A program made the position numbers and the translations under genes. A DNA stretch of 64,000 bases from the NCBI GenBank assembly GCA_023150875.1, contig JAKLKC010000018.1:1-64000 (forward strand), given 5' to 3'. Below, piece after piece: positions 1,818 through 64,000 of the stretch (its first letter is position 1; each line of letters opens with the position of its first letter). The notes beneath the pieces were generated by a model. The model saw only the letters and a program-made list of their open reading frames with translations. It was not told the DNA's origin and did not search any database. This DNA is from Myxococcota bacterium (GTDB lineage: Bacteria; Myxococcota_A; UBA796; UBA9615; JAKLKC01).

Positions 1818-3570
1818 GGGGGCCCGCCCCGCGCGCCCCGCCCGCACCCGCCCGGGGGCGTGGGGAGCGCCGCGTCTCCTCCTGCTGATCGCCGCCCTCG
1901 CCGCCCTCGCCGGCTGCGCCGCCCCCCAGCGGGCGGGGATCCGCGACAAGGGGCTGGAGTCCGCCCGCAGCACCCGGGCCGAGGTCGAGGCCAGCCTCGG
2001 GCCCCGCCGCCTCGCCCTCCTGATCGGCGTCGACCGGTACGAGGACCCCGTCTTCCCACCCCTGCGCTTCGCCTCCCGGGACGCCGCCGACCTCGCGGCG
2101 GTCCTGCGCTCGGAGAAGTACGGGGGATTCGAGCGGGTGGTGACCCTCACCCGCCCCGAGGAGGTCACCCGCGCGAGGATCATCAAGGAAGTCGCCAACT
2201 TGCGCGCCGACGCCCGCCGCGAGGACAGCGTCGTCGTGTACTTCTCGGGCCACGGCACCATGGCCTTCGCCGCCGCCGAGCGTCCCCGCCTGTACCTGGT
2301 GGCGGGCGACAGCCAGGTCTCGGACCTGCCCGGCACCGCCCTGGACCTGGCGGACCTCCAGGAGATCGTCACCGAGCTCCGGGCGGAGCGGAAGGCCCTG
2401 GTGGTGGACGCCTGCTTCGACGGGCTGGGCAAGTCCAGCGTGCCCAAGGAGGTGCGGGAGCGCTCCCTCCGCCTGGGTTCCGCCTCGAACCTCTCCAGCC
2501 GGATCTCCCTGGGTCAGTCCGAGGCCCACCTCTTCGCCACCACCTGGGGCCGCCCCGCCCGGGAGGACGACGCCCTCCAGCACGGGGTCTACACCTACTT
2601 CCTGGTCCAGGCCCTCAACTGGGAGCAGAAGGCGGCGGACACCAACGGCGACGGGCTGGTCAGCGTCTACGAGGCCCACGACTTCGCCCGGGGGAAGACG
2701 GTGTCCTACACCCAGGCGGCCCAGGTGCCCGAGGCGTACTTCCGGGTCGTGGGCGAGCGGGACCTCTACCTCGTCGGCGACGTCACCCGGCGGGCGGCCA
2801 CCGAGATGGGCCTGATCTACTTCTACGGCGACGGCACCTCGGAGTACGCTGACGCGAGCCTGTCGGTGGACGGCCGGTTCAAGGGCGCCTTCCCGGGCAC
2901 CTACGCCATCCCCCCGGGGGAGCACCGGATCGCCATCCGGAGCGGCACGGGGAGGATGCTCTTCGACCGGGTGGTGGGGATCCAGGCGGGCTCCAGCGTG
3001 GTCGCCGACCGGCTCACGGGAGAGCCGCCCCCCCGCCGGGTGGCCGTCTCGGTGGCGGGGGGGGCCCGCTTCGCCCTGGACGAGGGGATGCTGGGCCTCA
3101 CCGGTCGGTCGGTGCCGGGCCTGGAGGGGCGCGTGACCTTCCGGCCCGGGAACGGCCGGTGGAGCGGCCTGACGCTGGCGGCGGTGGGGGGATGGGGACG
3201 GACGGGCTCCCTGGCCGCCGACGGCGATCCCGCCGGGGACCGCCGCCGGGACCTGGGCTCCGTGGGGATCGCCCTGGGCTGGCGCTGGGACCGGCCCCGC
3301 TTCGGCTTCGGGATCGCGTGGAGCGCCCGCGCCCACTTTGCATCGGCCCTGCCCGGCGGGGAGGCGTCGTGCGGCGGAGCCGCCGGGTGCGACGGGTTCG
3401 CGTGGCCCTCCCAGGGCCTCCTGCTGGACCAGTCCCTCCCCCTCGTCCCGGGGCGCCTCGGCCTGGTCCTCTCCGAGGACCTCCAGCTCGCCCTGGTGGA
3501 CGTCGGGGGGGGCGCGCGCTGGCTCAGCGCGTCGGCGGCGGTGAGGCTCGGCGTCGAGGTCGCCTTCTGA
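1810..3570 (+). CDS. Caspase-like (peptidase C14) lipoprotein
   Basis: 586 residues from GTG 1810, which overlaps the previous gene. A hydrophobic signal ending LAALAGC places a lipobox Cys at residue 36, so the protein is probably anchored to a membrane outside the cytoplasm. The caspase fold follows: LALLIGVDRYEDP, the catalytic His in VVVYFSGHG (H148) and the catalytic Cys in LVVDACFDG (C202). A DTNGDGLVSVYE loop later resembles an EF-hand. The C-terminal third is beta-rich with a terminal Phe (GVEVAF), as in outer-membrane or surface domains. Both dyad residues are intact, so proteolysis is plausible. The sigma/anti-sigma partners suggest a regulated envelope stress or self-targeting function, which is inference. 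Confidence 0.87.
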   Translation: MTEGARPARPARTRPGAWGAPRLLLLIAALAALAGCAAPQRAGIRDKGLESARSTRAEVEASLGPRRLALLIGVDRYEDPVFPPLRFASRDAADLAAVLRSEKYGGFERVVTLTRPEEVTRARIIKEVANLRADARREDSVVVYFSGHGTMAFAAAERPRLYLVAGDSQVSDLPGTALDLADLQEIVTELRAERKALVVDACFDGLGKSSVPKEVRERSLRLGSASNLSSRISLGQSEAHLFATTWGRPAREDDALQHGVYTYFLVQALNWEQKAADTNGDGLVSVYEAHDFARGKTVSYTQAAQVPEAYFRVVGERDLYLVGDVTRRAATEMGLIYFYGDGTSEYADASLSVDGRFKGAFPGTYAIPPGEHRIAIRSGTGRMLFDRVVGIQAGSSVVADRLTGEPPPRRVAVSVAGGARFALDEGMLGLTGRSVPGLEGRVTFRPGNGRWSGLTLAAVGGWGRTGSLAADGDPAGDRRRDLGSVGIALGWRWDRPRFGFGIAWSARAHFASALPGGEASCGGAAGCDGFAWPSQGLLLDQSLPLVPGRLGLVLSEDLQLALVDVGGGARWLSASAAVRLGVEVAF

Positions 3571-28880: not shown

Positions 28881-30863
28881 GTGGACGACGCGACCTACAG
28901 CCGGATCGTCAGCTTCATCTGGGGGATCGCCGACGACTGCCTGCGCGACCTGTACGTGCGGGGCAAGTACCGGGACGTGATCCTGCCCATGACGGTGATC
29001 CGCCGCCTCGACGCCGTCCTGGAAGGCACCAAGGCGGCGGTCCTGTCGATGAAGGCCACCGTGGACGCGGCGCGGGTGGAGCACCCGGAGCCGGCCCTCC
29101 GGCACGCCGCGGGGCAGGCCTTCTACAACACCTCTCCCTTCAGCCTGAGGGACCTCAGGCACCGGGCCCACCGGCAGACGCTCCGGGCGGACTTCGAGGC
29201 GTACCTCGACGGGTACTCTCCCAACGTGCAGGTGATCCTGGAGAGCTTCGAGTTCCGCCACCAGATCCCCCGCCTCACGAAGGCCGACGCGCTGGGGACC
29301 CTCATCGAGAAGTTCCTGGACCCCTCGATCAACCTCAGCCCCCGGCCCGTCCTGGACGCCGACGGCACGGTGCGGCAGCCGGGCCTCGACAACCACGCCA
29401 TGGGGACGATCTTCGAGGAGCTGGTCCGCCGCTTCAACGAGGAGAACAACGAGGAGGCGGGGGAGCACTGGACGCCCCGGGACGCGGTGAAGCTGATGGC
29501 GCGGCTGATCTTCCTGCCCGTCGCCGACCGCATCGAGTCGGGCTCCTACCTCCTCTACGACGGCGCCTGCGGCACGGGGGGGATGCTCACGGTGGCCGAA
29601 GAGACCCTCAAGGCCCTGGCCCGGGAGCGGGGCAAGCAGGTATCCACCCACCTCTTCGGCCAGGAGATCAACGCCGAGACCTTCGCCATCGCCAAGGCGG
29701 ACTTCCTGTTGAAGGGCGAAGGCGAGGAGGCCGACAACCTGGTCGGCGGCCCCGAACACTCCACCCTGTCGAGCGACGCCTTCCCGGCCCGGCAGTTCGA
29801 CTTCATGCTCAGCAACCCGCCCTACGGCAAGAGTTGGAAGGGGGACCTGGAGCGGATGGGCGGCAAGGACGGCCTGCGGGACCCGCGTTTCGTGGTGCGC
29901 CACGGGGACGATCCGGGACTCTCGCTGGTGACCCGGACCAGCGACGGCCAGATGCTCTTCCTGGCGAACCTGCTCTCCAAGATGAAGCGGGACACGCCGC
30001 TGGGCAGCCGGATCGCCGAGGTGCACAACGGCTCGTCGCTGTTCACCGGGGACGCGGGGCAGGGCGAGAGCAACATCCGCCGCTGGATCATCGAGAACGA
30101 CTGGCTGGAGGCCATCGTCGCGCTGCCGCTCAACATGTTCTACAACACCGGCATCGCGACCTACGTGTGGGTGCTGACCAACCGCAAGCCCGAGCACCGG
30201 CGGGGGAAGGTCCAGCTCATCGACGCCACCGCCTGGTCCCGGCCGCTGCGCAAGAACCTGGGCAAGAAGAACTGTGAGCTGTCCGACGAGGACGTCGCCC
30301 GGATCTGCGACACCTTCCTGGCGTTCCGCGATACGGAGCAGTCGCGGATCTTCGACAACCGGGCCTTCGGCTACTGGAAGGTGACGGTGGAGCGCCCCCT
30401 GCGGGTCCGGGGCATCGACCCCGAGCGGACCTGGTCGGCGAAGGAGGTGAAGGAACTGAAGGCGAGGGGGGAGGTGGCCGAGGACGGGGTGCCGGTGCTC
30501 CGCCAGGTCCACGAGGCGGGCGTCGCCCCCGATCCCTTGCGGGGGCTTTTCGAGGCCACCGTAGGCGGCCGTCGCCGCGTGGTGGAGTACGAGCCCGACT
30601 CCGACCTGCGGGACACCGAGCAGGTCCCCCTGCTGGAGGAGGGCGGGATCGACGCCTTCTTGCGCCGCGAGGTCCTCCCCCACGCCCCGGGCGCCTGGTA
30701 CGACCCCGGCAGCGTGAAGGTGGGCTACGAGATCAGCTTCACCCGCTACTTCTACAGGCCCCAGCCCATGCGGACCCTGGAGGAGATCCGGGCCGACATC
30801 CTGGCGTTGGAACGGGAGACCGAGGGGATGCTGGCGGAGATCGTCGGGGGGGTGGGGCGATGA
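28881..30863 (+). CDS. hsdM: Type I restriction-modification methyltransferase subunit
   Basis: 660 residues from GTG 28881. The N-terminal helical HsdM domain (YSRIVSFIWGIADDCLRDLY, YRDVILPMTVIRRLDAVLEG) precedes the N6-adenine methylase core: SAM motif DGACGTGGMLTVAEE (D227) and catalytic motif NPPYGKSWKGDLERM (N312-P-P-Y), after AMGTIFEELVRRFNEENNEE and EHWTPRDAVKLMARLIF. It methylates adenine in the target chosen by HsdS and protects host DNA. It is longer than classical EcoKI HsdM because of the C-terminal region (about 470-660). It overlaps hsdS by 4 nt (ATGA). Confidence 0.97.
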   Translation: MDDATYSRIVSFIWGIADDCLRDLYVRGKYRDVILPMTVIRRLDAVLEGTKAAVLSMKATVDAARVEHPEPALRHAAGQAFYNTSPFSLRDLRHRAHRQTLRADFEAYLDGYSPNVQVILESFEFRHQIPRLTKADALGTLIEKFLDPSINLSPRPVLDADGTVRQPGLDNHAMGTIFEELVRRFNEENNEEAGEHWTPRDAVKLMARLIFLPVADRIESGSYLLYDGACGTGGMLTVAEETLKALARERGKQVSTHLFGQEINAETFAIAKADFLLKGEGEEADNLVGGPEHSTLSSDAFPARQFDFMLSNPPYGKSWKGDLERMGGKDGLRDPRFVVRHGDDPGLSLVTRTSDGQMLFLANLLSKMKRDTPLGSRIAEVHNGSSLFTGDAGQGESNIRRWIIENDWLEAIVALPLNMFYNTGIATYVWVLTNRKPEHRRGKVQLIDATAWSRPLRKNLGKKNCELSDEDVARICDTFLAFRDTEQSRIFDNRAFGYWKVTVERPLRVRGIDPERTWSAKEVKELKARGEVAEDGVPVLRQVHEAGVAPDPLRGLFEATVGGRRRVVEYEPDSDLRDTEQVPLLEEGGIDAFLRREVLPHAPGAWYDPGSVKVGYEISFTRYFYRPQPMRTLEEIRADILALERETEGMLAEIVGGVGR

Positions 30864-32272
30864 TCGAGGGGTTGAGGGCGTATCCGGCGTACAAGGACTC
30901 GGGGGTGCCGTGGTTGGGGGAGGTACCGGGGCATTGGGGGGTGAGGCGGGCGAAGTGGTTGTTCCTCAAGATGGATCGGCCATTTCGGGAGTCCGACGAG
31001 GTCATCACCTGCTTCCGCGATGGTGTCGTCACTCTACGGAAGAATCGGCGAACGCGTGGGTTCACGGAGTCGATAAAGGAGATCGGCTACCAGGGGATCC
31101 GCCGTGGCGACCTGGTGATCCATGCGATGGACGCCTTCGCGGGGGCCGTCGGCGTCTCCGACTCGGACGGCAGGGGGACACCCGTGTACGCGGTCTGCGA
31201 GCCGCGTGCTGGGGTCAGCGGCCAGTTCTTCGCGCGCGTGGTCCGCGAGATGGCCAGGAGCGGGTGGATCTTGGCGCTCTCGAGGGGGATTCGAGAGAGG
31301 TCCACGGACTTCCGGTACGAGTCCTTCGCTTCACAGCTTGTGCCTTTACCCCCACCGGACGAGCAGTCCGCCATCGTCCGCTTCCTCGACCACGCCGACC
31401 GCCGCATCCGGCGCTACGTCCGGGCGAAGCGGAGGCTGATCGCGTTGCTGGAGGAGGAGAAGCAGGCCATCATCCACCGGGCGGTGACGCGGGGGCTCGA
31501 TCCCGACGTGAAGTTGAAGCCGTCGGGTGTGGCGTGGGTGGGAGAGGTGCCGGAGGACTGGTCCGTCTGCGCGCTTCGGCACAGGTACTCTGAGTGCCTG
31601 GGAAAGATGCTGGATTCCAAGCGGATTCTCGGTAAGCACTCGCTCCCGTACCTGCGGAACACGGATGTGCAGTGGTTCCGCATCAACACGGAGGACTTGC
31701 CAGTTATGGACATCGCCCCCGACGAATGGGAGCGTTACACCGTCAGGAACGGTGATCTGCTCGTTTGCGAGGGAGGCGAGGTCGGTCGTGCCGCGCTATG
31801 GAGTGGCCATGCGGGAGTGTATGGCTTTCAGAAGGCGCTGCATCGCCTGCGCCCGTTACGGGATGAACATGATGTGCCTGGTTTCCTGCTCTATGTCCTC
31901 TGTGCGGCGGCGGCAGCGCGCGCCTTCCAGGACGGCCACGAGAGCACGATAGCTCACCTGACCGGCGACAAGCTTCGGGCACATCGATTCCCGTTCCCAC
32001 CCCTGCGGGAGCAACTCGCTATCGTGAAGTTCCTGGAGCGGGCCGGCGAGAAGATAGATGGCGCAGTAGCTGACACCCACCGCGAGATCACCCTCCTCCA
32101 CGAATACCGCACCCGCCTCGTCGCCGACGTCGTCACCGGCAAGCTCGACGTCCGGGCCGCCGCCGCCGCGCTGCCCGACGAGCCCGTCGACGAGGCTCCC
32201 GACGAACCCGACGACCTCACCCCCGACGACGCCGAAGACCTCGGCGACGCCCCGGAGACCGACGCCGCATGA
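30860..32272 (+). CDS. hsdS: Type I restriction-modification specificity subunit
   Basis: 470 residues. It has the two-half organisation of HsdS: each half begins with a similar phrase, AYKDSGVPWLGEVPGHWGV and KPSGVAWVGEVPEDWSV, opens a variable target-recognition domain and ends in a conserved helix (PPPDEQSAIVRFLDHADRRI and PPLREQLAIVKFLERAGEKI). It chooses the bipartite DNA target and bridges HsdM and HsdR. Base composition drops sharply between about 30,950 and 32,060 compared with the flanks, as expected for a module shuffled by recombination. The C-terminal tail is Asp/Glu/Pro-rich. It overlaps the next gene by 4 nt. Confidence 0.96.
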   Translation: MIEGLRAYPAYKDSGVPWLGEVPGHWGVRRAKWLFLKMDRPFRESDEVITCFRDGVVTLRKNRRTRGFTESIKEIGYQGIRRGDLVIHAMDAFAGAVGVSDSDGRGTPVYAVCEPRAGVSGQFFARVVREMARSGWILALSRGIRERSTDFRYESFASQLVPLPPPDEQSAIVRFLDHADRRIRRYVRAKRRLIALLEEEKQAIIHRAVTRGLDPDVKLKPSGVAWVGEVPEDWSVCALRHRYSECLGKMLDSKRILGKHSLPYLRNTDVQWFRINTEDLPVMDIAPDEWERYTVRNGDLLVCEGGEVGRAALWSGHAGVYGFQKALHRLRPLRDEHDVPGFLLYVLCAAAAARAFQDGHESTIAHLTGDKLRAHRFPFPPLREQLAIVKFLERAGEKIDGAVADTHREITLLHEYRTRLVADVVTGKLDVRAAAAALPDEPVDEAPDEPDDLTPDDAEDLGDAPETDAA

Positions 32273-32550
32273 CCGGCGAGCGCACCGCCACCTACGTCCA
32301 GGGGCTCGTGCGGGAGCTGTGCAAGCTCCCCACCGAGACGGAGTGGGTGGAGTTCAAGGTCGACAACAGCCACCCGCAGGAGATCGGGGAGTACATCTCC
32401 GCCCTCGCCAACGCCGCCGCCCTGGCGGGCAAGTTCATTAAGGATGCGATCCGGGCCGGCGTCATCGTGCCCTTCGATCCTGACGCTTCCCGGCAGCAGA
32501 TGAAGTACGTTCCTTGGTGGGCGGCGGCGTCCCGACGGGGGCTTCCATGA
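32269..32550 (+). pseudogene. Internally deleted AlbA/Schlafen-type ATP-binding gene
   Basis: 93 residues. Residues 20-54 (LPTETEWVEFKVDNSHPQEI, GEYISALANAAALAG) are the start of the AlbA_2/Schlafen-type putative transcriptional-regulator family (PF04326). Such genes often sit among hsd genes. Residues 55-85 (KFIKDAIRAGVIVPFDPDAS, MKYVPWWA) match the extreme C-terminus of the same family. The roughly 400-residue middle, including the DNA-binding and GHKL-like parts, is missing with the frame kept at about 32,431. I infer a precise in-frame deletion; the remnant can no longer perform the full function but may still be translated, since it overlaps hsdS by ATGA. The tail AASRRGLP goes beyond the normal end. 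Confidence 0.72.
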
Positions 32551-32556
32551 GTGCGC

Positions 32557-32665
32557 CACTTGACGGTCACTTGATGGAGAAGGGGGTCCGGCCCCCTGAG
32601 CGCGACCACAATTCCTTGCAATTACTGACTTTCCGTAGACCGAGTCTACTTGACGGCTACTTGAT
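32557..32665. repeat. Paired ACTTGA direct repeats before hsdR
   Basis: Two 19-bp repeats, 32,557-32,575 and 32,647-32,665, match at 16 of 19 positions. Each contains two ACTTGA hexamers 11 bp apart, so four copies lie on the same face of the helix in pairs. Between them is a GGGGG-TCCGG-CCCCC stem (about 32,582-32,596) and an AT-richer stretch that differs in composition from its surroundings. Whether this is operator DNA or residue of an excised element is unknown. The rest of the 220-bp gap before hsdR shows no gene. Confidence 0.7.
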
Positions 32666-32770
32666 CGTGCCAGCCGCGAAAGCTGTACCCCACCCTGGTG
32701 TAGAGGCGCAGCCCTCCCACCGAGAAGCTCGGCCCCGCGGGCTGACGTCTGGGCAGCGGAGTGCACTTCG

Positions 32771-35700
32771 ATGAAGACCGACACCACCGAGAAGGGCCTG
32801 GAATCCCTCATCGTCCGCGCCATGACCGGGCGGACGGACTTGCTTTCGCCCCCCCACGTCGCCACCGAGACCTCGGTCCCCGTCGCCGGGGGCACCGGCT
32901 GGCTGCTGGGGGACGCCGCCCACTACCACCGGGAGCACTGCCTGGACCTCGTCCAGCTCCGCGGCTTCCTGAGGGCGACCCAGCCCGAGCGGATCGGGGA
33001 CTTCGGGCTGGAGGCGGACGGGTCCGCGCGCTTCAAGTTCCTCTCGCGCCTCCAGGGAGAGGTCACCCGGCGCGGCGTGGTCGACGTGCTCCGCCAGGGG
33101 ATCCAGCACGGCCCCCACGACGTGGCGCTCTTCTTCGGCCCGCCCACTCCGGGCAACACGGCGGCGGAGGAGCGCTACCGCGGCAACCGCTTCAGCGTCA
33201 CCCGACAGCTCCGCTACTCCCAGGACCGGGCCGCCCTCGCCCTGGACCTGTGCCTCTTCGTCAACGGCCTGCCGGTCTTCACCTTCGAGCTCAAGAACCG
33301 GCTGACGAAGCAGTCCGTGGCCGACGCCGCCCTGCAGTACCGGCGGGACCGCGACCCCAGGGAGCGGCTCTTCGAGCTGGGCCGCTGCGTGGCCCACTTC
33401 GCCGTGGACGACCAGGAGGTGCGCTTCTGCACCCACCTCCAGGGGAAGGCGTCGTGGTTCCTTCCCTTCAACCGGGGTCACGACGACGGCGCCGGCAACC
33501 CGCCCAACCCCGACGGGCTCAAGACCGACTACCTGTGGAAGGAGGTCCTGACCCCGGACGGCCTCGCGGACCTCCTGCTGAACTACGCCCAGGTCACGGT
33601 GCGCAAGGATCCGCGGTCCGGGAAGAGGGAGCGCAAGCAGATCTTCCCCCGCTACCACCAGGTCGATGCCGTCCGGCGCCTGCTGGCCGACGCCCAGGTT
33701 CGCGGACCGGGGCGGCGCTACCTGGTCCAGCACTCGGCCGGCAGCGGCAAGTCGAACTCCATCGCCTGGCTCGCCCACCAGCTCGTCGGCCTCGCGCGGG
33801 GTGGGGCGCCGGTCTTCGACTCGGTCATCGTGGTCACCGACCGCCGGATCCTGGACCAGCAAATCCGCGACACCCTCAAGGACTTCGTCCAGGTGGGCGC
33901 CACCGTCGGGCACGCCGAGCGCTCGGGGGATCTGCGCCGCTTCATCCAGGCGGGCAAGAAGGTCATCGTCACCACCGTCCAGAAGTTCCCCTTCGTGCTC
34001 GACGAGATCGGCGCCGACCACCGGGGGCGCGCCTTCGCCCTCCTCATCGACGAGGCCCACTCCAGCCAGGGGGGCAAGGCGTCGGCGGCGGTGTCCCTGG
34101 CCCTGTCGGGGAGCGGCGCCGCCGAGGAGGAGGAGACCACCGAGGACCGGATCAACCGGATCATGGAGGGGCGCAAGCTGCTGCCCAACGCCAGCTACTT
34201 CGCCTTCACCGCCACGCCGAAGGCCAGGACCCTGGAGACCTTCGGCGAGGCCGTCCCCGGCGAGGTCGACGCCCACGGCGCTCCGAAGCGACGCGCCTTT
34301 CACAGCTACACCATGAAGCAGGCCATCCAGGAGGGCTTCATCCTGGACGTACTCCAGAACTACACGACGGTCCACAGCTACTACCGGCTGGTCAAGACCG
34401 TGGAGGAGGACCCGGAGTTCGACACCCGCAGGGCGCGCAAGAAGCTCCGGCGGTACGTCGAGGGCCACGACCACGCGGTCCGGCTCAAGGCCGAGATCAT
34501 GGTGGACCACTTCCACGAGCAGGTGCTGGCCCGCCGGAAGATCGGCGGCCAGGCCCGGGCGATGGTGGTGTGCAACGGCGTGGACCGCGCCATCCAGTAC
34601 TTCTCGGCCCTCCGGACCTACCTTTCCGAGCGGGGGAGCCCCCACCGCGCCATCGTCGCCTTCTCCGGCGAGCACGACCACGACGGCGGGAAGGCGACCG
34701 AGGCCACCCTCAACGACTTCCCCTCGGCGGAGATCCCCGACCGGATCCGCAAGGATCCGTACCGCTTCCTGGTCTGCGCCGACAAGTTCCAGACGGGCTA
34801 CGACGAGCCGCTGTTGCACACGATGTACGTCGACAAGACCCTCTCGGGGATCAAGGCCGTCCAGACCCTATCGCGTCTCAACCGGGCACACCCGGGCAAG
34901 ACCGATGCCTTCGTGCTGGACTTCGTGAACGACGTCGAGGCCATCCGGGCCTCCTTCGAGCCGTTCTACCGCGCCACGGTCCTGAGCGGAGAGACCGATC
35001 CGAACCGGCTGCACGACCTGAAGGCGGCCCTGGACCGGCGGCAGGTCTACGGCAGGGAGCAGGTCCAGGCGGTGGTCGAGGCCTTCCTCTCCGGAGCCGA
35101 ACGCGACTCGCTCGACGCCATCCTGGACGCCTGCGTCGCGGCATACGAGGAGCTGGACGAGGACGGGCAGGTGGAGTTCAAGGGCAAGGCCAAGGCGTTC
35201 GTTCGGACCTACGGCTTCCTGGCGAGCATCCTCCCGTTCAAGCGAGCGGACTGGGAGAAGCTGTCGATCTTCCTGGACTTCCTGATCCCGAAGCTCCCCT
35301 CGCCCGAGGAGCAGGACCTGTCGCGGGGGATCCTGGAGTCCATCGACATGGACAGCTACCGGGCGGAGAAAAGGGAGGCGATCCGGATCGCGCTCTCGGA
35401 CGCGGAAGGGGAGATCGAGCCGGCGACCGAGGGCGGGTCCGGGCGGAAGCCCGAGCCGGAGCTGGATCGCCTCTCGAGCATCGTCCGGGCCTTCAACGAC
35501 GAGTTCGGGAAGTACCCCTGGAAGGACACCGACCGGGTCCGCCGGATGATCACCGAGGAGATCCCGGAGCGCGTCGCCCAGGATCCGGCCTACCAGAACG
35601 CCCGCCGCCAGTCCGACGCGCAGAACGCACGCCTCGAGCTCGACCGCACCCTCACCCGGGTCCTGGTCGGCATGATGCAGGACGACACCGGCCTCTTCAA

Positions 35701-35800
35701 GCAGTACCAGGACAACCCAATCTTCCGCCGCGCGTTGCTCGAGTGGACCTTCGCCCTGACCTACGACGCCCCCCGCACCTCAACGCCCGCCCCGCGCTGA
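32771..35800 (+). CDS. hsdR: Type I restriction enzyme motor/nuclease subunit
   Basis: 1009 residues. The N-terminal PD-(D/E)xK nuclease has FELKNRLTKQSVADAALQYR with E173-x-K175. The superfamily 2 translocase follows: Walker A SAGSGKSNSIAWLAHQLVG (K327), DEAH box LIDEAHSSQGG, motif III AFTATPKARTLETFG, and later SRLNRAHPGKTDAFVLDFVN. A helical C-terminal domain completes it. HsdR pumps DNA past the bound complex and cuts at a distance when the target is unmethylated. The gene is complete and intact, so the system is probably active despite the damaged gene before it. Confidence 0.97.
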   Translation: MKTDTTEKGLESLIVRAMTGRTDLLSPPHVATETSVPVAGGTGWLLGDAAHYHREHCLDLVQLRGFLRATQPERIGDFGLEADGSARFKFLSRLQGEVTRRGVVDVLRQGIQHGPHDVALFFGPPTPGNTAAEERYRGNRFSVTRQLRYSQDRAALALDLCLFVNGLPVFTFELKNRLTKQSVADAALQYRRDRDPRERLFELGRCVAHFAVDDQEVRFCTHLQGKASWFLPFNRGHDDGAGNPPNPDGLKTDYLWKEVLTPDGLADLLLNYAQVTVRKDPRSGKRERKQIFPRYHQVDAVRRLLADAQVRGPGRRYLVQHSAGSGKSNSIAWLAHQLVGLARGGAPVFDSVIVVTDRRILDQQIRDTLKDFVQVGATVGHAERSGDLRRFIQAGKKVIVTTVQKFPFVLDEIGADHRGRAFALLIDEAHSSQGGKASAAVSLALSGSGAAEEEETTEDRINRIMEGRKLLPNASYFAFTATPKARTLETFGEAVPGEVDAHGAPKRRAFHSYTMKQAIQEGFILDVLQNYTTVHSYYRLVKTVEEDPEFDTRRARKKLRRYVEGHDHAVRLKAEIMVDHFHEQVLARRKIGGQARAMVVCNGVDRAIQYFSALRTYLSERGSPHRAIVAFSGEHDHDGGKATEATLNDFPSAEIPDRIRKDPYRFLVCADKFQTGYDEPLLHTMYVDKTLSGIKAVQTLSRLNRAHPGKTDAFVLDFVNDVEAIRASFEPFYRATVLSGETDPNRLHDLKAALDRRQVYGREQVQAVVEAFLSGAERDSLDAILDACVAAYEELDEDGQVEFKGKAKAFVRTYGFLASILPFKRADWEKLSIFLDFLIPKLPSPEEQDLSRGILESIDMDSYRAEKREAIRIALSDAEGEIEPATEGGSGRKPEPELDRLSSIVRAFNDEFGKYPWKDTDRVRRMITEEIPERVAQDPAYQNARRQSDAQNARLELDRTLTRVLVGMMQDDTGLFKQYQDNPIFRRALLEWTFALTYDAPRTSTPAPR

Positions 35801-58357: not shown

Positions 58358-59452
58358 TCAGGCCCGCGCCATCGCGCGTTCCCGGCGGAAGTGGTCGACC
58401 ACCTGCTCGGGGGAGGGCGGGGGGCCCTCGCGGTGGAGGTGGGTCAGGGTGGCGACGTAGGCCTCGCCGAAGGCGGAGGTGAGGGTGGCGGCGGTGAGGG
58501 CGGAGATCCCCGAGGCGGCGACCTGGGCGCCGGGGAGGAGCTTGAGCAGGCCCGTGGCCACCGCGCGGCCCGTCAGGGTGGCGCCGGTGCCGGTGACGGC
58601 GCTGGCCACCAGGGTCCGGAGGAAGGCCTCGGAGAGGGGCAGGCCGAAGACGGCGGTGATCCCCGCCAGCATCGCCACCTGCACGGGCACCAGCAGGGCG
58701 GCGTCGGAGAAGGGGATGGGGGTGGCGCCGATGGCGCCGGCGGCCGTCGCCGCCGAAGCGACGACGGCCCGGGCTCGCTTGCGCTTCGCCTCGACGTCAA
58801 CCTTCTGTGCGGCCACGAAGGCGTTGCGTTGCCCCTCGGGCACCACCTCCATCGTCGCCTCCACCAGGGGCACCAGCCCCATGGGGGGCATGGCGTGGCC
58901 GTCGTCGTACTCCTCGGGGATCGCCCGCACCCGCACCACCCCCCGGGCCTCCGGGGCCAGGCGCTGGGCCTCCGCCCGGAAACCCTGGTCGGAGCGGGCC
59001 TTGGTCACCACCACCAGCACCGGCATGTAGCGCGACAGCGTCCGGACCAGGTCGCTCTCCGCCTGCTCCACCCGCCGGGAGTCCTCGGCGACGCAGACCC
59101 AGGCGACGTGGACGTGGCGCTGGGGGTCCCGGTCCCCGGCCCGCTCCCGCACGAAGTCCTCCAGGGCCGCGAGGGTGCTCCGGAACTCCGCCAGCTCCAG
59201 GCCCCGGGTGTCGAAGATCGACACCGGGACCCCCTCCTTGACGATCTCCCGGGTGCCCGGGGTCACCGGGCGCCCCTGCCCCGTGTGGGCCAGGTCCCCT
59301 TGGAAGATGGCGTTGACCAGGGTGCTCTTGCCCACCCCGGTGCGGCCCGCCACCAGCACGTTCACCCGGCCCCGCCGCTGCAGGGCCTGTTCCATGGCGG
59401 ACAGGACGTCCACCACCTCCGGGGCGGCGCTCCGGCCGGATCGGGTCTTCAC
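58358..59452 (-). CDS. Era-like GTPase with DUF697-type membrane domain
   Basis: 364 residues from GTG 59452, with GGAGG 6 nt upstream. G1 is VLVAGRTGVGKSTLVNAIFQ, the switch is GQGRPVTPGTREIVKEG, G3 is VSIFDTRGLELAEF and G4 is VLVVVTKARSDQGF (TKxD variant). The C-terminal half is hydrophobic and glycine-rich (ATAAGAIGATPIPFSDAALL, VPVQVAMLAGITAVFGLPLS, LVASAVTGTGATLTGRAVAT), like DUF697/YcjF-type dynamin-like GTPases with membrane insertion. The end carries a conserved EQVVDHFRRERAMARA tail. It follows the CHAT gene with a 116-nt gap and may be part of that module. Confidence 0.88.
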   Translation of the reverse strand: MKTRSGRSAAPEVVDVLSAMEQALQRRGRVNVLVAGRTGVGKSTLVNAIFQGDLAHTGQGRPVTPGTREIVKEGVPVSIFDTRGLELAEFRSTLAALEDFVRERAGDRDPQRHVHVAWVCVAEDSRRVEQAESDLVRTLSRYMPVLVVVTKARSDQGFRAEAQRLAPEARGVVRVRAIPEEYDDGHAMPPMGLVPLVEATMEVVPEGQRNAFVAAQKVDVEAKRKRARAVVASAATAAGAIGATPIPFSDAALLVPVQVAMLAGITAVFGLPLSEAFLRTLVASAVTGTGATLTGRAVATGLLKLLPGAQVAASGISALTAATLTSAFGEAYVATLTHLHREGPPPSPEQVVDHFRRERAMARA

Positions 59453-59549
59453 GGGGGGTCCTCCCTCGGCGCCCGGCGGCGCCTCTCGCGAGCGGACGGG
59501 CCCGGCCACGGTCCGCGGCGGCGCGGCCCCTGGCGGGGCGAAGGGGCGC

Positions 59550-59555
59550 AGTGTA
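59550..59555 (-). promoter_or_regulatory. -10 TACACT before the GTPase gene
   Basis: Minus-strand TACACT followed by GCGC, 97 nt before GTG 59452, within the 116-nt gap after the CHAT stop. It suggests a separate start for the GTPase, which weakens the idea of one operon. The -35 is poor. Confidence 0.35.
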
Positions 59556-59568
59556 GCGGATTCCGCAA

Positions 59569-61605
59569 TCAAGGCGGAGGGCCGCCCACCCGCTCCGCCA
59601 CCGGCGCCCCCTCCAGCACCGCCACCAGGTCCGCCGCCAGGTCCGCCACGCCGAGGTGGCTCCACCATGCCACGTAGCGCCGGATCTGGCGCCGGGTGGA
59701 CCGCGCCGGGAAGCCGTCCGGCCCCGAGTGGGCCAGGAGCGCCCGGGCGTGCTTCCGCGCCCGGTCGGCCGCCCCCAGGGCGTCGGTGTCTCCCCACTCC
59801 TCCAACCCGCGCCGGGCCGCCAAGGCCTCCAGCAGGTGGAGCTCCGTCAGGGTCCCCTCCGCCCACTCGGCCTGGGAGGCCGATCCCCCGAGGTCCCGGC
59901 CCGCCGCCTCCCGGGCGGCCCGCCACCGCTCTCGGGGGACGGTCCCGTCCAGGACCGCGTCCAGGCAGAGACACTGGGTGATCTGCCACCACGCCGCCCC
60001 GGCCGCCTGGCGATACCAGCCCCGGGCCCGGACCAGGGCGCGCCGCTCCTCGCCCCCGGGGCGGCGGGGCTCCTCGCCCGGCGCCCCGCGGAGGCGGCCC
60101 GCCGCGAACACCCCCTCGGCGACCCGCTTGGACGCGCTCCCGAGGCACCCCAGCGCTTCGGCCCGCATCGCCTTCCACATCTCGGTGCGGCTCTTCTCCC
60201 ACGGGCGGTAGTGGTCCGCGTCCGAGGGGAGGCTCCGCTCCGCCCGCCGGGCGCACTCCTTCTCCACCCCTTCAAGGCGCTCGATCTCCGCCCGGAGCCG
60301 CGCGAAATGACGTTCCAATTCCAATGCCGCGGCCAGGGCCTCGGGCGAACCCGGGGCGAAGCCGCCGGCGGCGAGGGCGTCGATCCAATCGGAGGCCGTG
60401 TTGGAAGCCCGGTCCGCCTGCCGCAGCCGGCAGCCCACGAGCTGCTCGTCCAGGTCCTCGGGCAGCGCCGCGTAGGCCGCGAGGGAGGCCCAGTCGGCGG
60501 AGTCGGGGCCGAGGGCCCCCTGGAGGGTCACCCGGGCCCCGTGGATGGTCCGGCACACGTCCTCGCCCCGCAGCAGGCCGGGGTAGAGGGTCTGGGTCAG
60601 GACCACCGAGCCCCGCCAGGTCAGGGGGAACTGGGACGCCAGCACCAGGGGGATCCCCTCGTGGTGCAGGTCGTGGGCGACGCTGGCCCCCGGGGCGACC
60701 ACGGAGCCGACGTTGGCGCTGTCGCAGGTGGCCAGCGTGACCACCGTGGGGCCCAGCACCTGGCCGTCCTCGGCGCGCCGGAAGGAGCGGAGGGCCCGGG
60801 CCAGGCGGGCGCCGTCCACGACGTCGAGGGGGGGCGCCCCCGCCTCGCCGTGCAGGGCGATCCCGAACTTCCGCTGGCCCAGCACCTCGCGGGGGGCTCC
60901 GTGGGCCAGGACGTGGACGTGGGTGAAGTGGGCCGCCCCGCAGGCCTCCCGCACCTGGCCCCAGGTCGCCCGGGGGAGCACCGTCAGCAGCGCGTCCCGG
61001 GGGTCCGGCTCCCCGGGCCGGGGGGGACCGATCCAGGGGTCCAACGCCTGGCGCAGCGCCAGCAGGTGGGCCCGAAGCGGGATCCCCGGCACGCCCTCGG
61101 GGGAGGCGGCGACCACCAGCACCCGCGGTCGCTGGGGCCAAGGGTCCTGGGGAGGGCGGGCCCGTCGGGTGGTGCGGGTGAGCACCACCCGGGGGGAGTC
61201 CCGCAGCGCCAGCGGCAGGGGCCCGTCGGCGTAGCCCCGGGGCGGCGCCGCGATCTCGAAGGGGAGCAGGGCCAGCTCCGCCGCCGAGAGGACCAGGCTC
61301 ACGTGGATGGTGCTGGTCCCGGGGCCCTCGGCGATCCGCAGCTCGGCGGCCAGGGAGGGCACGGCCTCCAGCACCTCTCGCACCGTCTGGGCCGCTCGCT
61401 GGCGCAGGGCCTCCCGCTCGGGGCTCGGCTCCTGGGAGGCCAGGGCGCCGAGCTGGGCCAGCAGCTCCCAGTGGTCCACCGGCACCTGGACGGTGGCGCC
61501 GTCGTGGTCGCCGCACAGGGCGAGGTAGCGGTTGACCGGGGAGAGGATCTGGGCGTGGGAGGCGCCGTGTCGCAGGATCTCCAGGGTGACGGTGGCCACG
61601 GCCAT
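59569..61605 (-). CDS. CHAT-domain caspase-like protease
   Basis: 678 residues from ATG 61605, which overlaps the stop of the phosphoesterase gene (TGATG). The N-terminal half is the CHAT fold: pre-strand SAAELALLPFEIAAPPRGYA, the catalytic His in FTHVHVLAHGAPREVLG (H235) and the catalytic Cys in PTVVTLATCDSANVGSVVAP (C294), with SQFPLTWRGSVVLTQTLYPG after. Both catalytic residues are intact. The C-terminal 300 residues are helical, starting LELERHFARLRAEIERLEGV, and include WWQITQCLCLDAVLDGTVPR; no TPR signature is clear. CHAT proteases cut partner proteins in signalling and in defence. The likely partners are the coupled phosphoesterase and the truncated gene upstream; the target is unknown. 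Confidence 0.9.
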   Translation of the reverse strand: MAVATVTLEILRHGASHAQILSPVNRYLALCGDHDGATVQVPVDHWELLAQLGALASQEPSPEREALRQRAAQTVREVLEAVPSLAAELRIAEGPGTSTIHVSLVLSAAELALLPFEIAAPPRGYADGPLPLALRDSPRVVLTRTTRRARPPQDPWPQRPRVLVVAASPEGVPGIPLRAHLLALRQALDPWIGPPRPGEPDPRDALLTVLPRATWGQVREACGAAHFTHVHVLAHGAPREVLGQRKFGIALHGEAGAPPLDVVDGARLARALRSFRRAEDGQVLGPTVVTLATCDSANVGSVVAPGASVAHDLHHEGIPLVLASQFPLTWRGSVVLTQTLYPGLLRGEDVCRTIHGARVTLQGALGPDSADWASLAAYAALPEDLDEQLVGCRLRQADRASNTASDWIDALAAGGFAPGSPEALAAALELERHFARLRAEIERLEGVEKECARRAERSLPSDADHYRPWEKSRTEMWKAMRAEALGCLGSASKRVAEGVFAAGRLRGAPGEEPRRPGGEERRALVRARGWYRQAAGAAWWQITQCLCLDAVLDGTVPRERWRAAREAAGRDLGGSASQAEWAEGTLTELHLLEALAARRGLEEWGDTDALGAADRARKHARALLAHSGPDGFPARSTRRQIRRYVAWWSHLGVADLAADLVAVLEGAPVAERVGGPPP

Positions 61606-63167
61606 CACCCGCGGGCGGGGGCGAGGGTGCCCCCCGGGGAGGGGAGGAGGGAGGCGCCCTCGCCCTGGGGCGCCGCCAGGCACAGCTCCCCCACCACCCG
61701 GCCTCCGGTGGCGCGGATCCGGACGACGGTGGGGCTCCGCATCACCAGGGGCAGGTCGGAGGCGACGCCGAGGCGCACCCGGGCGGCGTCCAGGCGCCGG
61801 AGGGTGGGCGCCCGCAGCCCCTCCCACACGTCGACGAAGGCCGCGGGGTCCTGGAGCATCGCCGGCTTCAGGTGGATCAGGCGGGCCCAGGTGCCGGTGT
61901 TGAAGTAGATCCCCCCCGAGGGCCGGCGCAGCGCCCGCCGCAGGTGGGTGTGGCCGGCGACGACGAAGTCCAGATCGGGGCTCGTGGCGCCGTCCAGGGC
62001 GCGGAAGACCTCGTCCTCGTGGGAGGGATCGAAGCTGCGGTCGTCCGCCAGGCCCAGGAGGGCCCGGCGCACCCTCTCGTGGTCCGGGAGCCCCTGCACC
62101 CGACCCCACAGGGAGCGGCCGATCCCCGCCAGGGCGTCGCCGACCCCCAGCGTATCGTATCCGCCCTCCTCCTCTCCGGCCAGGGCCACGGGGTCCACGC
62201 CCCGCCGCAGCATGTCGTCCACCTCGTCGAGGAGGGCGGAGCCGCCCTCCGGAGCGGGGGAGGATCCCCCGGCCTCGTCGATCCGCCGCGCGGCGCGGGC
62301 CAGGAGGGGGGACTCCTCGCCCCCCGTCCCCTCGAGGCCGGGGTCCGCCCCCAGCACCGCGGGCAGGCGCCGCCGGTCCAGCGCGGCGTGGGCCGCCAGC
62401 CTCCCCACGTCCCCGATCCGGGCGGCCAACCGCCAGTCCAACGCGAACAGGACCGTGAAGACCGCCTCGATCTCCGGCTTCAGCAGGTCCACGAAGGGGT
62501 AGCGGGCCTTCACCGCGTTCATCACGTCGACGACGAGGCGCGTACCGGCGTTGGCGGGCCAGGGGGGAGGTGGGGCGCCGGCGAGGACCGCCGCCGAGGT
62601 CTCGGCCAGGGCCCCCCGGTCCACGATGTTCCAGTCGTCGGCGGTGTTCCCGTGGACGCACAGCACCCGGGAGGGGCCCACCCGGCAGGCGTAGCCCGCC
62701 CCGTCGAGGGCGATCCGCAGCCGCCCGCGGGCCGCCTCGGTGGCGTCGTCGGGGCCGCCGGGGCCGTCGCAGAGGGTCCGGATCAGGCGGTGGCGGACGT
62801 CGGGGAGGGCCAGCTCCACGTCGTGGTTGCCCAGGGCGAGCACCAGGTGGCAGCCGGGGGACCGGGCGAAGGCCGAGAGGGCGTCGAACACGGGGGAGAA
62901 GGCCGGGTCCCGGCGGATGGCGTCGAACTTGGAAAGGGCCCCGGGCACGTCCAGGTACTGCCCGGGCCTCGGCCCCTGGGCCAGGAAGTCTACGATGTCG
63001 CCGTTCAGCACCAGGCCCACCCGCCGCCCCGCCGCGCCGGCCGCGGCGGAGCGGATCACCCGGGCGAGGAGGTCCCCCTGGTCGAAGATCTGGAAGTCCG
63101 GGGAGGGTCCGCCCAGGTGGAGGTCCGACACCACCTGGAGCTCGTCGTAGACGTCGATGTCCTCCAC
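61605..63167 (-). CDS. Calcineurin-like metallophosphoesterase
   Basis: 520 residues from GTG 63167, with GGGAGG 7 nt upstream. Metal-binding motifs are in order: QVVSDLHLGG (D-x-H), VLNGDIVDFL (GD), ALGNHDVELALPD (GNHD), VLCVHGNTADDWN and FVVAGHTHLRRALRRPS (GHxH). This two-metal fold cleaves phosphomonoesters or diesters, including nucleic acids and cyclic nucleotides. Large inserted stretches (about residues 215-330) make it longer than typical members (200-350). Its stop overlaps the CHAT start, and it begins 18 nt after the truncated gene ends, so these three are one operon. Confidence 0.92.
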   Translation of the reverse strand: MEDIDVYDELQVVSDLHLGGPSPDFQIFDQGDLLARVIRSAAAGAAGRRVGLVLNGDIVDFLAQGPRPGQYLDVPGALSKFDAIRRDPAFSPVFDALSAFARSPGCHLVLALGNHDVELALPDVRHRLIRTLCDGPGGPDDATEAARGRLRIALDGAGYACRVGPSRVLCVHGNTADDWNIVDRGALAETSAAVLAGAPPPPWPANAGTRLVVDVMNAVKARYPFVDLLKPEIEAVFTVLFALDWRLAARIGDVGRLAAHAALDRRRLPAVLGADPGLEGTGGEESPLLARAARRIDEAGGSSPAPEGGSALLDEVDDMLRRGVDPVALAGEEEGGYDTLGVGDALAGIGRSLWGRVQGLPDHERVRRALLGLADDRSFDPSHEDEVFRALDGATSPDLDFVVAGHTHLRRALRRPSGGIYFNTGTWARLIHLKPAMLQDPAAFVDVWEGLRAPTLRRLDAARVRLGVASDLPLVMRSPTVVRIRATGGRVVGELCLAAPQGEGASLLPSPGGTLAPARG

Positions 63168-63185
63168 TTTCCAACCTCCCTCGCG

Positions 63186-64000
63186 TCAGTACAGGGCGCG
63201 CACGCGGGTCGAGAGGGTGAGCCTCGCCCGTTCCAGCTCGACGGTGACGGTGCCGTCGGCGATGGGGAGGTCCAGGGTCCCCTCCCCCAGCGACTCGTCG
63301 GCGTCGAACAGGTTCTCGAAGACGTCGTGGGTCGCGTACCAGTCCGCCTCCAGGGCCTTCAGGGCGAGGCGGATGGAGGTCATCTCGTCGAAGACCGGGC
63401 CGTCCACGATGGCCTCGCCGGGGGAGAGGGTCGCCCCCTCCTCCATCGCGTAGACCGGCACCACCCGGTGGGACATGCGGCGGACGTCCACGACGGGGTC
63501 CCGGCCGAAGACCTCCCCCAGCCACGGCCATCGGACCTCGGTCTCCACCACCACCTCGGCGGGAGGCTCGCCGGTCTCCTCCAGGTCGAGGGCGTCGTCC
63601 CTCTCGCGGTCGTCCAGGAGCTCGATGGACTCCAGGACCACCGTGAAGCGGCGGGAGCCCACCAGGGCGGCGGCCCCCGCGGCGTGGGCGCCGTCGGAGT
63701 CGCGGGTGGCGAAGTGGTCGGTCCAGGCGTAGCTCCGGGACGAGGCCAGCAGCTCCCCCGAAGGGGTGGGGAGGCGGGCGTCCGGGGCCATGGCGTGGAA
63801 CCACTGGTCGTCGCTGAACAGGATCCCGTCGTTGGGCCAGGACTCGGGGTTGACCAGGTCCAGGAGGGGCAGGCCGAAGGCGTCCTCGAAGGTGGGGCGA
63901 TCGGCGACGACGTGGTGGACGACCATGCCCCCGAAGGCGGGGTTGTTGCCCTCGGTGCGGACGTGGTCGCAGGCGGCCACGTTGGACTCGTACCAGTCGT
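63186..64000 (-). CDS. 5'-truncated hypothetical protein at the right edge
   Basis: Partial. The frame is open to the last base, so the true start lies outside; the first readable residues (DWYESN) join the stretch from 63,980 on. About 271 residues are seen, acidic overall. Phrases such as GGMVVHHVVADRPTFEDAFG, MSHRVVPVYAMEEGATLSPG and DGTVTVELERARLTLSTRVR suggest a beta-rich fold; I recognise no family. The word DWY occurs both at the broken start (DWYESN) and near the end (LEADWYATHDVFENLF), hinting at an internal duplication. It is first in the operon with the phosphoesterase and CHAT protease. Confidence 0.75.
   Translation of the reverse strand, partial: DWYESNVAACDHVRTEGNNPAFGGMVVHHVVADRPTFEDAFGLPLLDLVNPESWPNDGILFSDDQWFHAMAPDARLPTPSGELLASSRSYAWTDHFATRDSDGAHAAGAAALVGSRRFTVVLESIELLDDRERDDALDLEETGEPPAEVVVETEVRWPWLGEVFGRDPVVDVRRMSHRVVPVYAMEEGATLSPGEAIVDGPVFDEMTSIRLALKALEADWYATHDVFENLFDADESLGEGTLDLPIADGTVTVELERARLTLSTRVRALY

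What the first reader, a model, noticed from the sequence alone, without database searches (positions are those of the whole stretch)
58358..64000. CHAT protease coupled to a large phosphoesterase, an unknown protein and a dynamin-like GTPase
Seen: the truncated gene, the phosphoesterase (18-nt gap) and the CHAT gene (TGATG overlap) form a tight operon, followed 116 nt later by a DUF697-type GTPase. CHAT dyad H235/C294 and all phosphoesterase motifs are intact. Known: CHAT proteases work as effectors in some phage-defence and cell-death systems, and dynamin-like GTPases also occur there. Inference: a protease-phosphoesterase module, possibly with a membrane-active GTPase, that could be an undescribed conflict or signalling system.
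Basis: partly seen in the sequence, partly recalled or inferred. Interest (0 to 1): 0.72.

Follow-up and report, generated by a model that had tools for sequence, protein, structure and literature searches.

The report
Protease and phosphoesterase gene pair
Two neighbouring genes, one for a caspase-like protease and one for a metal-dependent phosphoesterase, form a two-gene unit found across several bacterial phyla, and the phosphoesterase's relatives sit beside proteases of other, unrelated kinds, which suggests a protein-cutting switch; the two outer genes of the proposed cluster do not belong to it.

Summary
The partial gene is a complete 581-aa predicted lipoprotein (63186-64931). It and the DUF697 GTPase have no homologue in 57 phosphoesterase loci from other genomes. 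What remains is a genuine two-gene module: metallophosphoesterase (MPE, 61605-63167) then CHAT protease (59569-61605).

A related CHAT gene lies directly downstream of the MPE in 24 of 51 MPE loci from named genomes, the 24 closest ones, and in 8 of 8 plasmid records, over Myxococcota, Desulfobacterota, Pseudomonadota and Planctomycetota. MPE and CHAT distances correlate (r = 0.92). Across the wider MPE family, 58 of 63 loci have a neighbouring or fused peptidase: CHAT, trypsin-like (often STAND-fused), C25-like or HEXXH-type. Of 24 outgroup MPE loci, none had a hit.

Best reading: the MPE is an enzyme controlled by a partner protease, like the gated MBL nuclease-protease pairs of Hachiman, AVAST and Canu, but with a different enzyme fold. 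Cleavage, substrate and phage defence are untested. Against it: similar insertions in unlinked MPEs, mostly housekeeping flanks, and one CHAT-linked MPE without its metal ligands.

The parts
61605..63167 (-). Metallophosphoesterase (MPE), 520 aa, calcineurin-like; first gene of the conserved pair
   Evidence: Pfam PF00149 E 1.2e-6; metal ligands D15, H17, D57, N114, H115, H406, H408 invariant in 36 aligned sequences, H172 in at least 90%; AlphaFold2 pLDDT 86.6, pTM 0.87; best structural match LpxH, Z 17.6
59569..61605 (-). CHAT (caspase/separase-like) protease, 678 aa, with a C-terminal helical domain (about residues 385-664); second gene of the pair, start overlapping the MPE stop
   Evidence: Pfam PF12770 E 1.2e-16; H235 and C294 invariant in 34 sequences examined; AlphaFold2 pLDDT 89.8; best structural match Craspase TPR-CHAT 8d9g, Z 23.4 over residues 2-382
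62148..62366 (-). Low-confidence stretch of the MPE (about residues 268-340) inside its large insertion between H172 and GHTH(405-408); candidate but unproven cleavage region
   Evidence: pLDDT block means 44-68 over residues 271-340; short conserved xL[GS]A[ED]-type motif at residues 270-275; against: an insertion of similar length occurs in MPEs not next to a protease
63186..64000 (-). Neighbour, not part of the module: 3' part of a 581-aa predicted lipoprotein hydrolase (full gene to contig position 64931)
   Evidence: no Pfam hit; no homologue in 57 MPE loci; homologues in 16 of 188 genomes
58358..59452 (-). Neighbour, not part of the module: 364-aa GTPase with DUF697
   Evidence: PF05128 E 1.7e-10, PF01926 E 5.4e-8; no homologue in 57 MPE loci; best relatives lie elsewhere, without MPE or CHAT

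Best explanation
The MPE and CHAT genes form one two-gene module, probably horizontally mobile. Most likely the CHAT enzyme is a substrate-specific protease whose C-terminal helical domain senses a trigger. When triggered, it cuts its co-encoded partner, the MPE, and this cut switches on (or re-targets) a phosphoesterase that then acts on a nucleotide, nucleic acid or lipid-linked phosphate, to arrest or kill the cell. Shown: the conserved pairing and order, co-divergence of the two proteins, intact catalytic residues in nearly all copies, and the exchange of the protease for unrelated peptidase classes in the wider MPE family. Inferred: that the MPE is the protease's substrate, that cleavage activates it, what senses the trigger, what the MPE hydrolyses, and that the outcome is defence or programmed death.
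For: Linkage: 24 of 51 loci retrieved with an MPE-only query carry a CHAT-subfamily gene directly downstream, and these are the 24 best-scoring; 8 of 8 plasmid or chromid records with the CHAT have the MPE upstream; in 377 genomes 8 of 9 CHAT-subfamily hits are linked, one of them (G221) inferred from contig ends. Only these two families are shared by all 24 loci; the other shared ORF clusters that I inspected were mostly antisense frames of the two. Distances correlate, Mantel r 0.92, 0 of 9,999 permutations as high. Partner exchange: of 63 core MPE loci 26 have CHAT, 3 CHAT-STAND, 18 trypsin-like, 8 C25-like (one fused), 3 a fused HEXXH-type domain, 5 none found; 0 of 24 outgroup MPE loci have a hit with the three peptidase profiles. 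The common property of these partners is proteolysis. CHAT-linked MPEs are one clade (SH-aLRT 100; 8 partner changes on the tree against 31.2 in shuffles). The CHAT fold is closest to enzymes that cut dedicated protein substrates: Craspase TPR-CHAT, separase, SAVED-CHAT (what they cut is recalled). Precedent: Tuck et al. 2025 (PMC12799240; abstract, passages and Discussion read) show an MBL-fold pro-nuclease encoded beside a protease and activated by cleavage, and suggest that other enzyme classes may work so.
Against: No cleavage is shown. The large MPE insertion is not specific to protease-linked copies: GNHD-to-GHxH distance has median 251 in 21 measurable outgroup loci of 24, against 279.5 (CHAT) and 269.5 (trypsin). 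The MPE beside an intact CHAT in G221 has lost H17, D57, N114, H115 and H172, so catalysis is dispensable there. Genes around 19 CHAT-MPE loci are mostly housekeeping, with only scattered defence-family hits (125 proteins), and the Na+/H+ antiporter and glutamate-cysteine ligase each recur three times, apparently in the three Desulfoluna and the three close Burkholderiales loci (clusters), which is unlike a fast-turning defence island. No hit in phage records and only one weak partial hit in viral contigs.
Confidence: 0.5

Rival explanations
1. The MPE is an off-switch. The CHAT protease is the toxic effector, activated through its helical domain by a small phosphate-containing signal, and the MPE hydrolyses that signal, as ring nucleases do in type III CRISPR (recalled analogy).
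For: Calcineurin-type phosphoesterases are described as nucleotide-processing parts of conflict systems (PMC7159879, PMC8195603, passages). One CHAT homologue (L088) shows a weak TPR-S (sensor) match, E 4e-4, under the cut-off. MPE ligands are conserved in nearly all copies.
Against: It would need CHAT, trypsin-like, C25-like and HEXXH-type partners all to answer to the same class of signal, whereas what they share is proteolysis. The metal-ligand-less MPE in G221 could not be an off-switch.
Confidence: 0.2
2. The MPE is a non-catalytic binding partner, an inhibitor or scaffold that holds the CHAT protease inactive, antitoxin-like.
For: G221 keeps a ligand-less MPE (no stop in the two pieces read) next to a CHAT with an intact dyad; tight co-divergence of the two proteins; gene overlaps or short gaps suggest co-translation.
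Against: Seven MPE metal ligands are invariant in 36 aligned sequences, and at H17 only 2 of 64 in the wider set have another residue, which a pure scaffold would not need.
Confidence: 0.15
3. An envelope or lipid-metabolism pair: an LpxH-like phosphoesterase whose level is set by a dedicated protease, with no role in conflict.
For: Best structural match of the MPE is LpxH (Z 17.6, 214 residues aligned); housekeeping flanks.
Against: Sporadic distribution (9 of 377 genomes of the phylum for the CHAT subfamily), occurrence on a Methylobacterium plasmid near a DNA methyltransferase gene, and STAND or WD40 fusions of the partner proteases in relatives.
Confidence: 0.1
4. A four-gene system with the GTPase and the lipoprotein, as first proposed.
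For: All four lie on one strand with short gaps in this genome.
Against: No linkage of either outer gene in relatives; the lipoprotein is predicted to be exported while CHAT and MPE show no signal sequence by eye.
Confidence: 0.03

Closest known systems
Gated nuclease-protease pairs of Hachiman, AVAST, Lamassu, DRT and Canu (Tuck et al. 2025, PMC12799240)
   Same: A metal-dependent hydrolase gene beside a protease gene, typically upstream; protease class exchangeable (trypsin or caspase family); trypsin partners fused to STAND-type proteins; co-evolution.
   Different: The hydrolase is a calcineurin-like phosphoesterase closest to LpxH, not an MBL-fold nuclease; partners also include CHAT, C25-like and HEXXH-type proteins; cleavage and defence are untested.
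Craspase TPR-CHAT (Csx29) and SAVED-CHAT
   Same: Same CHAT fold with His-Cys dyad (Z 19.1-23.4); a protease with a helical or sensor domain.
   Different: No SAVED domain detected; the helical domain is C-terminal; sequence identity about 10-17% in the structural alignments.
Calcineurin-superfamily phosphoesterase effectors in GAP1-N1, STAND and TRADD-N conflict systems (PMC7159879, PMC8195603)
   Same: Same enzyme superfamily in NTPase- or protease-linked loci.
   Different: There described as a variable effector domain; here usually a separate gene and the constant member, while the protease varies.
LpxH (UDP-2,3-diacylglucosamine hydrolase)
   Same: Closest solved fold of the MPE core (8qka, Z 17.6).
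   Different: The MPE is about twice as long, with a large insertion before GHTH, and is paired with proteases.

Membership tests
CHAT peptidase family (PF12770) | Pfam match over cut-off and His-Cys dyad | tested here: met
   61.5 bits against cut-off 24; H235 and C294 invariant in 34 sequences
Calcineurin-like metallophosphoesterases (PF00149) | Pfam match over cut-off and DxH / GDxxD / GNHD / H / GHxH motifs | tested here: met
   29.5 bits against 21.5; motifs
Gated nuclease-protease pairs (Tuck et al. 2025) | Hydrolase gene adjacent to a protease gene, protease class exchangeable | tested here: met
   58 of 63 core loci
Gated nuclease-protease pairs (Tuck et al. 2025) | MBL-fold nuclease | tested here: not met
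   The hydrolase is a metallophosphoesterase by Pfam and by fold
Gated nuclease-protease pairs (Tuck et al. 2025) | Flexible active-site-blocking insertion tied to the protease partnership | tested here: inconclusive
   Low-confidence stretch 268-340 in a large insertion, but insertion length is similar in unlinked relatives; distance to the active site was not measurable
Gated nuclease-protease pairs (Tuck et al. 2025) | Proteolytic activation | not testable with these tools
   Needs biochemistry
SAVED-CHAT | N-terminal SAVED domain | tested here: inconclusive
   Pfam finds only CHAT in the protein at E 0.01; the PADLOC SAVED_CHAT match covers only residues 228-382, inside the CHAT part
Craspase / type III-E TPR-CHAT | Linked gRAMP (Cas7-11), Csx30 and CRISPR array | not tested
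   No CRISPR search was run
GAP1-type GTPase-centred conflict systems | GAP1, GASH and DO-GTPase genes beside the phosphoesterase | tested here: inconclusive
   The local GTPase is DUF697 and is not linked to the pair in relatives; models for GAP1 or GASH were not run on their own

The most novel reading that the evidence does not exclude
A second, independent class of protease-controlled pro-enzyme in bacterial immunity or cell death: LpxH-like metallophosphoesterases kept silent by their own insertion until a partner protease, exchangeable between CHAT, C25-like, trypsin-like and HEXXH-type classes, cuts them; the window holds the minimal two-gene form with its own sensor domain on the CHAT.
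Probability: 0.35. Interest if true: 0.82.

Novelty: new variant of a known kind. Interest (0 to 1): 0.66.

Why it matters
One phosphoesterase family whose gene lies beside, or is fused to, several unrelated classes of protease is strong comparative evidence for proteolytic control of an enzyme class not described as such in the papers found here. If true, it turns the suggestion in Tuck et al. that other proteolytically activated enzymes exist into a direct test, with a compact two-gene version present in named isolates (Minicystis rosea, Desulfoluna, Paraburkholderia caribensis, a Methylobacterium plasmid).

Tried and rejected
Four-gene system: rejected. Partial gene as unknown partner: extended into the genome, it is a complete predicted lipoprotein. 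MPE insertion as a protease-specific gate: the length test did not support it. Defence-island test on 125 flanking proteins: no clear enrichment; mad3 (5) and mad8 (4) led the list, and mREase_IV, LmuA, Avs1a, RTasMBL and ThsB matched one member each. That call has no control set, so it is descriptive; 5 of the 24 loci (the ones also read as G loci) and proteins of over about 1,200 residues were left out of it. C25-like partners are weak Pfam matches (E 2e-4 to 0.04) with conserved SHG and Cys, no PDB sequence match at E 1 and no HHalign link to CHAT; the label is tentative. The HEXXH motif was read by eye in three fusions. Sequence profiles of MPE and CHAT match no PDB chain at E 0.01. Viral contigs: one weak partial MPE hit; phage records: none for CHAT. 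Literature: in the open PMC library found no report of a phosphoesterase-CHAT pair; subscription papers and supplements were not seen. PMC12799240: abstract, passages and Discussion read; PMC8195603, PMC7159879, PMC10907252: passages only; other listed papers: search listing only.

Partner classes came from profiles plus reading of ORFs by eye. L100 has both an upstream CHAT protein and a convergent C25-like gene and was counted as C25. The 5 without a neighbouring peptidase: L037 (a trypsin-like gene lies further downstream), L169, and L103, L170, L178, where the contig ends at or soon after the MPE. Two core loci (L109, L112) were left out of the tree because their MPE is split or cut.
Full report
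What is there. The window is the first 64 kb of a 107,302-base contig of a 6.9-Mb, 180-contig genome. On the minus strand lie, in order of transcription, a lipoprotein gene (63186-64931, 581 aa), the MPE (61605-63167, 520 aa), the CHAT protease (59569-61605, 678 aa) and a DUF697 GTPase (58358-59452, 364 aa). The 'truncated' gene is complete once the contig is read on; its signal sequence, DDDT repeats and serine-hydrolase-like motif were read by eye, and Pfam finds nothing in it.

The outer genes do not belong. tblastn of the GTPase and the lipoprotein against 57 MPE loci from other genomes gives no hit at E 1e-3. The GTPase occurs in 9 of 188 genomes of the phylum; its four best relatives have no MPE or CHAT profile hit in 9-16 kb of surrounding DNA, and in one (G043) it follows genes that look like ruvC, ruvA and ruvB by eye. 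The lipoprotein family occurs in 16 of 188 genomes, and apart from the window's own these are not the genomes with strong CHAT hits in that sample.

The pair is real. In 188 genomes of the phylum the three strong CHAT hits (window, G075, G066) are exactly those whose MPE hits are strongest, and in each the MPE lies directly upstream of CHAT. A scan of one genome for each of 84,980 species with an MPE-only query returned 51 loci; the 24 best all have a CHAT-subfamily gene directly downstream, the other 27 do not. Gaps run from a 4-base overlap to 364 bases, by a mechanical start choice. Only MPE and CHAT are common to all 24 loci (other shared ORF clusters that I inspected were mostly antisense frames). 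From the CHAT side, 9 of 377 genomes have a hit; 8 have the MPE beside it (7 directly, G221 by contig-end evidence), and the ninth, much weaker hit (G333, E 4.7e-50) does not. Eight of eight plasmid or chromid records with the CHAT (seven Paraburkholderia, one Methylobacterium) have the MPE directly upstream; in one of them (L218) the CHAT reading frame is in two pieces. Pairwise distances of the two proteins over 25 pairs correlate at r 0.92, with 0 of 9,999 permutations as high. Carriers include Myxococcota, Desulfoluna, Burkholderiales, Methylobacterium, Robiginitomaculum, Algicola, Anammoxibacter and another planctomycete, so the pair has moved between phyla or is very old.

The MPE family and its partners. 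A profile of eight MPEs found 74 of 377 genomes. Reading the neighbours of 63 distinct core loci gave 26 CHAT, 3 CHAT-STAND, 18 trypsin-like, 8 C25-like and 3 fused HEXXH-type partners; 5 had none, 3 of those at contig ends. Pfam confirmed a sample: trypsin with nSTAND1 or NACHT, CHAT with NB-ARC and TPR, and nSTAND1 with WD40 repeats. C25-like proteins are weak Pfam matches but keep an SHG and a Cys, and one is fused to an MPE (L111). The same three peptidase profiles hit none of 24 outgroup MPE loci; the HEXXH type has no profile in that test. On the MPE tree of 61 rows CHAT-linked MPEs form one clade (SH-aLRT 100), and 8 partner changes are needed against 31.2 in shuffles (quick method, the label 'none found' counted as a class). 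The partner is thus inherited with the MPE but has been replaced several times by other protease classes.

Structures. The CHAT model (pLDDT 89.8) matches Craspase TPR-CHAT (8d9g, Z 23.4, rmsd 3.6, 303 aligned), separase (Z about 21) and SAVED-CHAT (Z 20.8); these cleave dedicated protein substrates (recalled). The C-terminal 280 residues are helical and unassigned. The MPE model (pLDDT 86.6) is closest to LpxH (8qka, Z 17.6, rmsd 3.6, 214 aligned); Foldseek's top hits are purple acid phosphatases (E 2.6e-4), one of them titled with an 'inhibitory conformation of the repression loop'. That this loop is removed by proteolysis is recalled, not checked. Between H172 and GHTH the MPE has a large helical insertion with a low-confidence stretch at about 268-340.

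Mechanism. What the partner families share is proteolysis, so the most economical link is that the protease acts on the MPE. Tuck et al. [quoted passage not shown] The present family has the same gene logic with a different enzyme. Not shown: cleavage, activation, substrate, trigger, phenotype.

Results against. Insertion length is similar in MPEs without a protease neighbour (median 251 in 21 of 24 measurable outgroup loci; CHAT-linked 279.5), so it is not a gate acquired with the protease, although the CHAT-linked copies are somewhat longer. In G221 the MPE next to an intact CHAT has lost H17, D57, N114, H115 and H172; L102, trypsin-linked, has lost H17. Flanks of 19 CHAT-MPE loci are mostly housekeeping, with isolated defence-family matches. 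No phage record has the CHAT. These leave the off-switch, inhibitor and non-defence readings open.

Verdict. The four-gene guess resolves into a well-supported two-gene CHAT-MPE module within a larger protease-linked phosphoesterase family. I rate it a new variant of the protease-hydrolase pairs now known in bacterial immunity; whether it is itself immunity is open. The nine literature searches listed under Tried and rejected found no earlier description, within an open-access library only.

Noticed in passing
L114:7051-7993 and L203:2-2453 (G221): A CHAT-linked MPE that has lost at least five metal-ligand residues while its CHAT keeps the dyad: a natural pseudo-enzyme version of the pair, split over two contigs.
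   Followed up: partly
L215:8610-13508 (Methylobacterium plasmid NZ_CP099612.1): Beside the MPE-CHAT pair lie a second annotated metallophosphoesterase, a large P-loop ATPase-like protein (motif by eye), a hypothetical protein and a Dam-family methyltransferase; looks like cargo of a small plasmid.
   Followed up: no
L107:6869-9961, L108:1-3293, L110:7291-10068: MPEs fused to a C-terminal region with a conserved HEVGHD motif, a possible metalloprotease; none of the C25-like, CHAT or trypsin alignments matches it.
   Followed up: partly
window 1960-2511: A second, weak CHAT match in the window (25.9 bits, over the cut-off), far from the pair; the genome has four CHAT matches in all.
   Followed up: no
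window 28881-35800: Genes whose starts look like a type I restriction-modification cluster, read by eye from ORF starts only.
   Followed up: no
L009:1187-4664 (contig 63186-66663): Two consecutive predicted lipoproteins with long DDDT aspartate-threonine repeats.
   Followed up: no
L037 (G187):9384-17068: An MPE of the core family followed by an ABC ATPase, with a trypsin-like gene further downstream: a possible three- or four-gene variant.
   Followed up: no
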